A stretch of DNA of 64,000 bases from Eublepharis macularius (lineage: Eukaryota > Chordata > Lepidosauria > Squamata > Eublepharidae): contig NC_072800.1 of the NCBI RefSeq assembly GCF_028583425.1, positions 12,847,001 through 12,911,000 of the forward strand. The letters are read 5' to 3'. Positions 37,301 to 63,839 of this stretch are shown here, piece by piece. The notes beneath the pieces are model-generated. The model worked only from the letters and a program-made list of their open reading frames with translations. It did not search any database and had not been told where the DNA came from. The translations under genes were made by a program, and so were the position numbers. Each line of letters begins with the position of its first letter. Position 1 is the first letter of the stretch.

Positions 37301-40300
37301 TATGGTTGTTGTGGGTTTTCCGGGCTGTATTGCCGTGGTCTTGGCATTGTAGTTCCTGACGTTTCGCCAGCAGCTGTGGCTGGCATCTTCAGAGGTGTAG
37401 CACCAAAAGACAGAGATCTCTCAGTGTCACAGTGTGGAAAAGATGTAGGTCATTTGTATCTACTCAGGAGGGGTGGGGTTGAGCTGAGTCATCCTGTAAG
37501 AGTTTCCCAGGGTGTGGAATGCTAATGGCGGGAGGCTTCACTGTATCCTGAGGAGGTTCTTTTGCATATGGATTGGTACTTGATGTGCTAATCTTCTCTG
37601 CAGGGCTATTGTCAAGGATAGAATGTTTTGTTAGCCTGGTGTTTTTCAGAACTGGCAACCATGCTCGGTTCATTCTTAAGGTTTCTTCTTTCCTGTTGAA
37701 GTTTTGCTTATGCTTGTGAATTTCAATGGCTTCCCTGTGCAGTCTGACAAAGTAGTTGGAAGTGTTGTCCAGTATTTTGGTGTCCTGGAATAAGATACTG
37801 TGCCCTGTTTGAGTTAGGCTATGTTCAGCCACACCTGGTGCTACACCTCTGAAGATGCCAGCCACAGCTGCTGGCGAAACGTCAGGAACTACAATGCCAA
37901 GATCACGGCAATACAGCCCGGAAAACCCACAACAACCATCGTTCTCCGGCCGTGAAAGCCTTCGACAATACACAAATGTCTACTTTGCTGATCATTAGCT
38001 TCTGTAGCCATGTATAAATTATTTGGTGTCCAGTTTATATCATGTGTCAGATTTGCCTAAATTGTGGTGGTGGTGGGTGTGGGTGTGTGTGTGGGGGTGT
38101 GTGTGTGTGTGATCAAAGAATTGCTTGTGATTCAGAGACTTGAAAATACTGTTTTATAGAAACCAATGCAGAATGAAGTGACTTTGAATACTTCAGTGCT
38201 ACATCATAGCCTTTTACATTTTTGTAGGAATTCTTTGAGATAACATCTGACACTGAAGCAACTCAAGTGGTACGCATTGCACAGTCTTTGTCAGACGCAT
38301 TGAAGGCTTTCTGTGCAAAGAAAGAAGCTGTAAGTGCCTTTATTATAACATCACTTCTTTTATCCCATGGCTTCATGTACTTGTGTCTTTGCTTCTAAAA
38401 GCTTCAGTATTCATTTTCTGATGCTATAACAAGCGATACTGTATCAATTACGCTATTTAGGAAAACATCTAAGTAATCTCTGCTCATGTTAAAAACTTCT
38501 TAAGTTAATTGCATAATTAATTACCTTGCCTGTTCATCTGCTTCATTAATCTTTCTTTGCCATTCGGTACTTCATCCTTGCTCCTTTGACCAGTAATCTC
38601 TCTATTTGGACCATTCTGTATCCTTATATTTCTATATCTGCTTCTTTACAGTCTGATTTTTTGCATGCTCCATAGCCAGCGTCCTGGGTTGCATTCCAGA
38701 ATAGCTTCATAAAGTGTCTAATTTATTTTCCAAGCCCCGTGAAGTCTTCTGAAATTTTTAAAGGATTTTGTTCATTTTTAAGCAAGCTTGGGATGTGCTA
38801 GATAGCCGTTTTCATAAAATTATTTGGGATACTGTACTTCCAGTAAGTTAGTATTAGGTATTCACGCTAAAGAAACAGCATACACAAAGACTGTGCATTC
38901 AGGGGGCAGGCACACTGTTGGATTTTGCCACAAGAAGTCCACCTGCCAAAGAGACATGGCCTGAATAACCATAGGAGTTGTTATTGGTCAGAGAAGCAAA
39001 GATGAAAATCGGAACAGGGAAACTCTGGCTGTGTGAGCAAAGCCTTTCCCATGTTTGCATATCACTTCAGATTGCAGAATACATTTAAACTGAAGACAAA
39101 TGATTTCTGAATGTTTCCCTAGCATTTTTCCTCTAGAAGGTGTTCAGTTTGAGGACTTCATCTTTGGCTGTTCGATGTAGATATGCTGACAGTCTCCTTT
39201 AGAACATGGAGTGTTCCAGTCTCATTGGAGATGGTGCCTTTGCATATTTTGTTTCCCTCCTTGTATAAAAAGGAAGCAAACTAATGCTTGTTAAGAGAGT
39301 CAAGACAACACAAACTGGAAAGAATGCAGTGGGCAAGATTATTATTGTCCCCCTATTTACTGTTCAGTTGTGTGCATTGGTTGAGAGTTGATTAGCTCCA
39401 TACCAGCTATCCAACCATTGCTGTTCTGCAACCCTAACTTACACATACAATTCAGTGAAGCAATAATACTTCTTTGTTATTTTAGATCAAGCATATTAGA
39501 AGCCTTCCACCATTGCTGGCACCTATACCCAGACACTCAAAGCAGCAAACACCGTATGAAAATTTCAAAGAGGATCCAGGTACTCTCTAAAATATATACT
39601 GTGAAATAATGTACAAAAAATCCCAACATTATCAACTGCATTTAAAGTTTCATGTGTTCGGTATTGACTGCTACTATTACTTTGACTTATTTTTAATTCA
39701 ATTATAATACTCTCTGGAGGAAGTGGGGATTGATGAGTGTCATGTGACAAGCAGAATTCCCCACTGATTATCTGTAAATGTTTTCAGCACCAAATCAATA
39801 AGAGTATTTCCTGATTACTTTGAATGGTTCGATATGACTTCCTTCCGGGCCAGTTGGAAACATCCAGGGGTTCAGGGTCTATTGATGTGCCACTTTGTGG
39901 TGGGAAAGCTTTGCATGGGTAGAGATGGATGGAGGATGGAATTTGACTATTGGATTAAGAATATGAATACACTTCCAAATACATTGTAGAATGTAACCCT
40001 GTACTAAGCTCCTGAAACTTTGTTTTGAATGGTAACTAGTAGCATACTTGATTTATAGCTAAGCACATAGGTGCATGAACGATGTATGAAAGATTCATAC
40101 TGTATTTCAGGCATGCAACATGAAAAATACAGCTTTTTGGAGTGAATTCTGCACTTTGGTACAAACGGCTCCAAATTTTCCTGAACTGTACGAGTTCAGC
40201 GTCACATAGTTCTGTATTGCCCCTAATTAGATGCTGTAATCGCCCCTTCTCTGTGCAGTTTGTATATTTTATTAGTAGGAAGAGATTCATGACAAGTCAC

Positions 40301-63839: not shown

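What the first reader, a model, noticed from the sequence alone, without database searches (positions are those of the whole stretch)
37303..62994. Three foldback elements share a 12-bp target duplication and hammerhead-like arms
The elements at 37303-37970, 47090-47310 and 62787-62994 are each an inverted pair of arms. Each is flanked by a perfect duplication of exactly 12 bp (CACAAATGTCTA, TCTAGTGTGAAT, AGCCAATCCAAA). Each carries CUGANGA-hairpin-GAAA, or a one-base variant, in its arms. The 37-kb copy encodes a Penelope-like (GIY-YIG-associated) segment; the other two have no coding sequence. A natural reading is that the small foldbacks are non-autonomous passengers of a Penelope-like machinery, with a ribozyme processing the ends. 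Hammerheads in Penelope-like elements are established knowledge. The non-coding foldbacks as their dependants, with a fixed 12-bp duplication, are inference.
Basis: partly seen in the sequence, partly recalled or inferred. Interest (0 to 1): 0.78.

Follow-up and report, generated by a model that had tools for sequence, protein, structure and literature searches.

The report
Twin-primed Penelope retrotransposon foldbacks
The three hairpin-shaped repeats are inserted pieces of protein-coding Penelope-type jumping genes, and copies elsewhere in the same genome suggest that the element cuts its target 12 bases apart and starts copying its RNA from both cut ends, which would explain a puzzling structure.

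Summary
Observation confirmed to the base: three inverted-arm elements, each with a perfect 12-bp duplication. In the window's own genome, 39 of 46 sampled foldbacks of the 47-kb family have an exact duplication of 12-15 bp, and 12 of 12 measured copies of the 37-kb family have 12-14, as expected of one length of 12 plus chance extension. The arms carry a minimal hammerhead motif that Rfam misses. The small foldbacks are not a separate non-autonomous family: their arms are the pseudo-LTR of a coding Penelope-like element (PLE) with RT and GIY-YIG domains. Listed junctions do not sit at the ribozyme cut. Best explanation: twin target-primed reverse transcription. A staggered cut gives two 3' ends 12 nt apart; one starts copying beyond the PLE 'tail', the other before it, and the two cDNAs meet head to head. 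For it: one tail and one tail-less end in 68 of 69 elements, a dyad C|N12|G target motif in the 47-kb family (13/20 and 17/20), junction centres too tight for a snap-back hairpin in 34 of 100, and two elements whose arms hardly overlap. Inverted pseudo-LTRs, tails and hammerheads in PLEs are known; the fixed duplication, dyad motif and one-tail rule were not in the papers I could search.

The parts
37291..37302 (.). 12-bp target duplication, left copy (37-kb element E1)
37303..37405 (-). E1 left arm: antisense pseudo-LTR, tail-less outer end (84-85 nt into the ORF)
37406..37835 (-). E1 middle: 3' end of the PLE ORF and its 3' flank, read on the minus strand, continuous with the left arm; matches the C-terminal end of the 863-aa ORF of L144
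37836..37938 (+). E1 right arm: sense pseudo-LTR; minimal hammerhead motif with CTGA at 37849
37939..37970 (+). E1 tail (32 nt), present on one arm only; ends 116 nt into the ORF
37971..37982 (.). 12-bp target duplication, right copy (E1)
47078..47089 (.). 12-bp target duplication, left copy (47-kb element E2)
47090..47224 (-). E2 left arm: antisense pseudo-LTR with tail (the outer 49 nt, 47090-47138, are absent from the other arm); hammerhead CTGA at 47212 on the minus strand
47228..47310 (+). E2 right arm: sense pseudo-LTR, tail-less; hammerhead CTGA at 47240
47311..47322 (.). 12-bp target duplication, right copy (E2)
62775..62786 (.). 12-bp target duplication, left copy (62.8-kb element E3)
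62787..62869 (-). E3 left arm: antisense pseudo-LTR, tail-less; hammerhead core decayed
62877..62994 (+). E3 right arm: sense pseudo-LTR with tail (about 62964-62994); motif CTGATGA...AAAA, one base off the core
62995..63006 (.). 12-bp target duplication, right copy (E3)
6324..6414 (+). fourth copy of the E2 family: single tail-less arm, not a foldback, no clear duplication (best shared word near the ends 5 nt)

Best explanation
The three features are insertions of two families of coding Penelope-like retrotransposons with RT and GIY-YIG endonuclease. Each is two cDNAs of the element's 3' region lying head to head. Inferred mechanism (twin target-primed reverse transcription): the endonuclease, probably as a dimer, cuts both strands 12 nt apart and leaves 12-nt 3' overhangs; both 3' ends prime reverse transcription of element RNA at its two internal start sites, one beyond the 30-50 nt 'tail' and one before it; the two cDNAs run towards the RNA 5' end, stop at separate points and are joined by pairing or end joining, often at short palindromes; filling in the overhangs gives the 12-bp duplication. 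Shown here: the duplication length, the dyad target motif in one family, one tail and one tail-less end per two-ended insertion, independent-looking inner ends, coding parents. Inferred: dimer, order of steps, 3' overhang, and that both cDNAs use one RNA molecule or RNAs of one source locus. The hammerhead belongs to the pseudo-LTR; nothing here shows that its cleavage makes the insertion ends.
For: Duplication: 46 distinct E2-family foldbacks give longest exact duplications 12:20, 13:12, 14:5, 15:2, 11:2, 5-9:5; flanks paired across loci reach 11 or more in 1 of 600 draws. Own arithmetic: a true 12 with 1/4 chance of extension per side predicts 21.9/11.0/4.1/1.4 for the 39 at 12-15. E1 family: 10 of 10 pairs 12-14 (cross-paired flanks reach 12 or more in 1 of 90), two more at 13, window E1 12. 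Target: at the 20 exact-12 sites C precedes in 13 (background 0.20) and G follows in 17 (background 0.18), both highest at spacing 12 among offsets 6-21, with mirrored flanking bias. One-tail rule: 45 of 46 E2-family foldbacks, 9 of 9 further two-ended E2-family insertions with a duplication, 13 of 13 of the E1 family with the window's, plus E3: 68 of 69. The second start is a defined place: 45 of 48 short arms end at query position 94-102. Arms that hardly overlap: L081 (one arm stops at q101, the other is only q103-135) and C4:79011576-79014841 (about 40-nt tail stub, 7-nt overlap). Unpaired junction centre under 3 nt in 21 of 50 listed junctions upstream of the hammerhead and 13 of 50 around its cut. 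Coding parents: L107 and L108 with E2 arms (GIY-YIG 8.7e-05, RVT_1 6.7e-12); L144 with an 863-aa ORF between direct pseudo-LTRs (RVT_1 5.3e-12). Published: the purified anole PLE cuts and extends both strands and starts at two adjacent internal sites that bound the tail (PMC11167929, main text read).
Against: Both arms of an element carry the same subfamily letter at two informative sites (0 mixed of 46 at positions 50 and 57), and the 507-nt arms of L107 are identical while L107 and L108 are 97.8% alike: this fits one template copied twice, but also a hairpin. Other sites are mixed: position 8 next to the junction in 17 of 46, CpG position 17 in 5 of 46. 66 of 100 listed junction centres are 3 nt or longer and so compatible with a snap-back hairpin. 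The 20 motif sites were chosen for having no chance extension, which itself shifts the neighbouring base a little, and the motif is not clear in the E1 family (C before in 5 of 10, G after in 2 of 10). L080 has a 14-bp duplication with one arm only; L002 has two tails and no duplication and lies in PLE sequence; L009 and L026 have no 12-bp duplication; L096 has a tail end and a tail-less end 2.6 kb apart but no shared duplication. In the anole assay the two strands did not differ in start site (PMC11167929), so the one-tail rule has no known cause. In one search the second duplication was sought by a 12-base exact repeat, so those cases cannot test the length.
Confidence: 0.66

Rival explanations
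1. Self-priming (snap-back) of a single PLE cDNA: its 3' end folds back and copies itself, giving a head-to-head foldback; the 12-bp duplication comes from one staggered cut. This is the published reading for Adineta vaga inverted pseudo-LTRs, there with an antisense template.
For: Palindromes at the junctions, as described in PMC3846280 (Discussion read); both arms share subfamily letters at positions 50 and 57; arms of L107 identical over 507 nt.
Against: The second arm would be expected to copy the tail too, yet it stops at a defined site before it in 45 of 48; L081 and the C4:79011576 element have a tail arm that hardly overlaps the other arm, so neither is readily a copy of the other; 34 of 100 listed junction centres are 0-2 nt, too small for a hairpin loop (the loop limit is general knowledge).
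Confidence: 0.24
2. Non-autonomous foldback family (retrozyme-like or MITE-like) mobilised in trans by a PLE.
For: Short elements without ORF; 1064 head-to-head junctions of the E2 type in the genome, 0 in the reversed control; all three sense frames of the E2 arm have a stop before the tail.
Against: The same arms, with the same one-tail ends and 12-13-bp duplications, flank 2.2 kb of RT and GIY-YIG coding sequence; intermediate lengths exist (L109, L088, L090, L081, L091).
Confidence: 0.06
3. Hammerhead-cut RNA is the template, so the ribozyme sets the element ends.
For: A minimal hammerhead motif sits in the pseudo-LTR of both families.
Against: 0 of 50 listed junctions are a run-off at the cut and 5 of 100 arms end there, while 10 of 50 sit at the AAGCTT palindrome; more junctions lie upstream of the whole motif (1064 against 242, by two patterns of different length). 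In the anole PLE, ribozyme mutants insert normally in vitro (PMC11167929). A control pattern further inside the arm did not complete.
Confidence: 0.03
4. DNA foldback transposon with a 12-bp target duplication.
For: Terminal inverted arms and a fixed duplication.
Against: Ends are asymmetric (one tail), inner ends vary, and the interior of longer copies codes for RT and GIY-YIG endonuclease.
Confidence: 0.01

Closest known systems
Penelope/Poseidon-type PLE of Anolis carolinensis (PAc; PMC11167929)
   Same: E1 family: ORF ATG at the start of hammerhead stem II; predicted cut 29 nt after the ATG (26 in PAc); outer ends 84-85 and 116 nt into the ORF (main start in PAc 111-118), so a 32-nt tail between two start sites; single ORF with RT and a GIY-YIG region.
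   Different: Here two-ended genomic insertions are measured: 12-bp duplication and one tail plus one tail-less end. The main text reports an ATT cleavage preference and gives no duplication length.
Adineta vaga Penelope elements Pen2a/Pen3a (PMC3846280)
   Same: Inverted pseudo-LTR completing the insert, optional 31-bp tail on one of the inverted pseudo-LTRs, head-to-head order, palindromes at the junction, target duplications.
   Different: Duplications there of 8, 9 and 10 bp or none; explained by self-priming; no target motif in the passages and Discussion I saw beyond a preference for AT-rich sequence.
Minimal type I hammerhead ribozymes of PLEs (reviewed in PMC6155905 and PMC7229834, passages seen; primary paper not held)
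   Same: CUGANGA, stem II, GAAA, almost no stem III.
   Different: Both families here have one extra base between CUGANGA and stem II; self-cleavage untested.
LINE-1 twin priming (recalled, no paper read)
   Same: Two primers at one target copy one RNA and leave an inversion.
   Different: There the inverted piece is internal and target duplications vary; here both outer ends are defined internal start sites and the duplication is fixed.

Membership tests
Penelope-like element (GIY-YIG type) | Single ORF with reverse transcriptase | tested here: met
   863-aa ORF of L144, RVT_1 5.3e-12; L108 fragment RVT_1 6.7e-12
Penelope-like element (GIY-YIG type) | GIY-YIG endonuclease domain | tested here: met
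   L107 ORF PF01541 8.7e-05, 23.2 bits against a cut-off of 22.6; L144 has no Pfam hit for it at E up to 0.1 but aligns with the L107 domain at 27% identity, E 0.001
Penelope-like element (GIY-YIG type) | Pseudo-LTRs in partial tandem, inverted pseudo-LTR, optional 30-40 nt tail | tested here: met
   L144: same pseudo-LTR word at 532 and 3201, period 2669; inverted arms with one tail
Penelope-like element (GIY-YIG type) | RT phylogeny inside the PLE clade | not tested
   no tree built
Hammerhead ribozyme | CUGANGA / GAAA core with stems I and II | tested here: met
   descriptor hits in E1, E2 and the 6.3-kb copy, 0 in 60 simulations; E3 one base off
Hammerhead ribozyme | Match to an Rfam hammerhead model | tested here: not met
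   filed as hammerhead-like only
Hammerhead ribozyme | Self-cleavage | not testable with these tools
   needs a bench assay
Retrozyme (non-autonomous, hammerhead) | No coding parent with the same terminal sequence | tested here: not met
   L107, L108
Foldback or MITE DNA transposon | Symmetric terminal inverted repeats and a transposase parent | tested here: not met
   one-tail ends; RT and GIY-YIG interior

The most novel reading that the evidence does not exclude
These PLEs integrate by coordinated twin priming: an endonuclease dimer with a dyad target makes a 12-nt staggered cut and hands the two 3' ends to the two RT start sites of one RNA, one end to each site, so that every two-ended insertion carries exactly one tail. 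The 'tail' and the 'inverted pseudo-LTR', long-standing oddities of PLEs, would then be two faces of one reaction.
Probability: 0.5. Interest if true: 0.75.

Novelty: new variant of a known kind. Interest (0 to 1): 0.6.

Why it matters
How PLEs integrate is open: the anole protein is described as the first active full-length PLE protein purified, and the steps after the first cDNA as yet to be validated (PMC11167929). Genomic copies here give numbers that any mechanism must meet: a duplication of 12, a dyad motif in one family, one tail per two-ended insertion, independent-looking inner ends. Since an active purified PLE exists, the model can be tested directly. It also tells annotators that short foldbacks with these arms are PLE debris rather than a separate non-autonomous or MITE family.

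Tried and rejected
Rfam on the window, on the E1 and E2 elements and on one arm of each: no hammerhead; microRNA-precursor scores on the E2 hairpin, all below gathering, come from the long stem. Exact patterns in viral contigs (3 scans) and prokaryote contigs (1 scan): no match. Pfam on the E1 C-terminal fragment and the ORF start: none. Solved structures: none for the E2-parent RT, one weak RT chain for L144. Two literature searches, on a recalled reptile repeat name and on gecko PLE duplications, gave no paper. C11:14502798/14507360, which looked like a two-tail element, was dropped: its left flank (L136) is the same sequence as L140, which lies inside the L144 ORF, and no duplication is shared.

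Rows dropped before counts: L029 and L037 (and L030, removed by the script) as segmental copies of L025; L005 as the same site as L002; L095 as a copy of L088; L083, L087, L101, L103, L104, L105, L109 and most of L038-L067 as second views of sites already counted; L080 (one arm) and L096 (no duplication) left out of the one-tail count. E1-family ends without a partner in the listing were not measured. Six single-arm loci were extended to about 5.5 kb; no second 12-bp duplication was found, and for L096 none of 6 or more bases. The E3 family search, the search with the 6.3-kb copy and a control junction pattern did not complete. Bias: the first E2 sample used a query with one tail, the second a tail-free query; each scored 40 of 1010 first-look candidates. 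The junction lists are the first 50 places of 1064 and of 242; the templates of the simulation were read from those junctions.

Full report
What is there. The three elements exist exactly as described. Inserts 37303-37970 (E1), 47090-47310 (E2) and 62787-62994 (E3) are each flanked by a perfect, maximal 12-bp duplication, each duplicated word occurring only at those two places in the window. Arms are 93-99% complementary. E2 and E3 are one family (about 79% alike); E1 is another; a fourth, single-arm copy of the E2 family lies near 6324-6414.

Hammerhead. A descriptor for a minimal hammerhead (stem I of 3 or more pairs, CUGANGA, 0-1 base, stem II of 4 or more, GAAA, short stem III, UH) finds five sites on the two strands of the window, all in these arms, and none in 60 first-order Markov simulations. 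The 0-1 base was allowed after seeing the motifs, so the test is somewhat generous. Both families share the same odd layout: one extra base before stem II and two bases between GAAA and UH, while stems I and II differ in sequence but stay paired (read). The whole E2 foldback folds as one long hairpin, so the inserted foldback is not itself a good ribozyme. E3's core is decayed. Rfam has no match. Reviews describe PLE hammerheads as minimal, lacking helix III (PMC6155905, passages; PMC7229834, passages).

E1 is a truncated PLE. Read in sense, its pseudo-LTR has an ATG at the start of stem II, the predicted cut lies 29 nt after it, the short arm ends 84-85 nt and the long arm 116 nt into the ORF. 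In the anole PLE the ORF starts at stem II, the cut is 26 nt on, and reverse transcription starts mainly 111-118 nt into the ORF, with two start sites that bound the genomic tail (PMC11167929, main text). Its parent is present: L144 holds an 863-aa ORF between direct pseudo-LTRs 2669 nt apart, with an RT match and a region that aligns with a GIY-YIG domain (no Pfam hit for it). The 40 candidates scored of 1829 include many ends listed as 100% identical over 530 nt, so the family looks young.

E2 and E3 are also truncated copies of a coding PLE. A single-arm query gave loci where the same arms flank 2.2 kb (L107, L108) or a few hundred bases (L088, L090, L109). The interiors of L107 and L108 code for RT and GIY-YIG. 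Arms run from about 30 nt to over a kilobase. There are 1064 short head-to-head junctions of the E2 type in the genome (none for the reversed control). So the small foldbacks are not a separate non-autonomous family, although nothing excludes that some were copied in trans.

Duplication length. For 46 distinct E2-family foldbacks the longest exact duplication at the ends is 12 in 20, 13 in 12, 14 in 5, 15 in 2, 11 in 2 and 5-9 in 5; pairing the flanks of different loci gives 11 or more in 1 of 600 draws. Two of the seven below 12 become 12 and 13 when one mismatch is allowed (L017, L039). For the E1 family 10 of 10 two-ended insertions give 12-14 (cross-paired flanks give 10 or more in 8 of 90 and 12 or more in 1), two more give 13, and the window copy gives 12. 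Both sets look like a single length of 12 plus chance matches of neighbouring bases (own arithmetic). A two-ended pair without any duplication also exists (L096).

Target. At the 20 E2-family sites with a duplication of exactly 12, C precedes it in 13 and G follows it in 17, against about 0.20 and 0.18 in the flanks; both counts are the highest among offsets 6-21 (next 10 for C, 8 for G), and neighbouring positions are biased in mirror fashion (binomial tails about 1e-5 and 1e-10). Choosing sites without chance extension shifts these bases slightly by itself. Over the 41 sites, where placement can be off by one or two, C precedes in 22 and G follows in 30. In the E1 family C precedes in 5 of 10 and G follows in 2 of 10, so the motif is shown for one family only. 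In the window E2 and E3 have both C and G, E1 only the C.

One tail per insertion. 45 of 46 E2-family foldbacks have one arm that runs to position 126-135 and one that stops near 94-102 (86 in two); the exception (L002) has two tails, no duplication and PLE sequence as flank. The rule holds in 9 of 9 further two-ended E2-family insertions with a duplication, in 13 of 13 of the E1 family with the window copy and in E3: 68 of 69. If each end drew its start site independently, exactly one tail could occur in at most half. Part of the E2 sample came from a query with one tail, which would hide none/none pairs; the foldbacks added by the tail-free query showed none either.

Junctions. Inner ends differ between elements. 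In the first 50 listed junctions upstream of the hammerhead the unpaired centre is 0-2 nt in 21; a simulation with two independent ends on one template gives a similar spread. In the first 50 junctions around the cut it is 0-2 nt in 13, ten of them the AAGCTT palindrome, and none is a run-off at the cut. Two elements have arms that hardly overlap: in L081 one arm stops at q101 and the other consists of q103-135 only; in the C4:79011576 element the tail arm is a stub of about 40 nt that begins at the tail-less site. A hairpin copy of one arm does not readily make these.

Mechanism. A staggered cut with two 3' ends 12 nt apart, both used as primers at the two known internal start sites, explains the duplication, the dyad motif, the tail rule, the head-to-head order and the independent inner ends together. 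Arms differ by 1.7% within an element and 2.9% between elements, and carry the same letter at two subfamily sites (0 mixed of 46), though a site next to the junction is mixed in 17 and a CpG site in 5; so one RNA, or RNAs of one source, probably serve both. That the two stubs end where the other cDNA began hints at one RNA shared by both, but rests on two cases. The self-priming model of PMC3846280 (Discussion read) explains head-to-head order and palindromes but not the defined second end, the tight centres or the stubs. It remains possible for a part of the copies.

What is known and what is not. Inverted pseudo-LTRs, the tail on one of them, target duplications of 8-10 bp, junction palindromes and PLE hammerheads are in print (PMC3846280, PMC11167929, PMC7229834, PMC6155905). 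I found no statement of a fixed 12-bp duplication, of a dyad C|N12|G target or of an obligatory single tail through the listings and the texts named here, in a library of open-licence papers only; most listed papers were not opened, and the primary papers on PLE hammerheads and PLE diversity were not held.

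Noticed in passing
16190-16306: 5S rRNA-like sequence on the minus strand (Rfam 45.9 bits, above gathering), probably a pseudogene or 5S-derived SINE.
   Followed up: no
62164-62373: A further foldback (92-nt arms, 93% complementary, 26-nt spacer) without hammerhead descriptor hit; no 12-bp duplication, longest shared word near the ends 6 nt.
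   Followed up: partly
40735-40911: G+C-rich overlapping inverted repeats, unrelated to the PLE arms.
   Followed up: no
L144:179-2770: Uninterrupted 863-aa PLE ORF between direct pseudo-LTRs; with many E1-family ends listed as 100% identical this suggests recent activity.
   Followed up: partly
L081:2055-2087 and L141: In both elements with a stub arm the stub is just the tail, beginning where the other cDNA starts, as if the two cDNAs shared one RNA and one blocked the other.
   Followed up: partly
L134/L135: The E1-family insertion on C10 has a target containing ATGGTTGTTG, complementary to the RNA at the tail-less start site; primer pairing may help there.
   Followed up: no
L088 and L095: Two insertions with identical duplication on different contigs (C6 and C4), about 65 kb and 161 kb from the contig starts: likely a subtelomeric duplication.
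   Followed up: no
L080: One-armed E2-family insertion with a 14-bp duplication: the second end was joined without a second arm.
   Followed up: partly
L096 joined with L111: A tail end and a tail-less end 2.6 kb apart in head-to-head order without any shared duplication: two insertions, or one with a deleted flank.
   Followed up: partly
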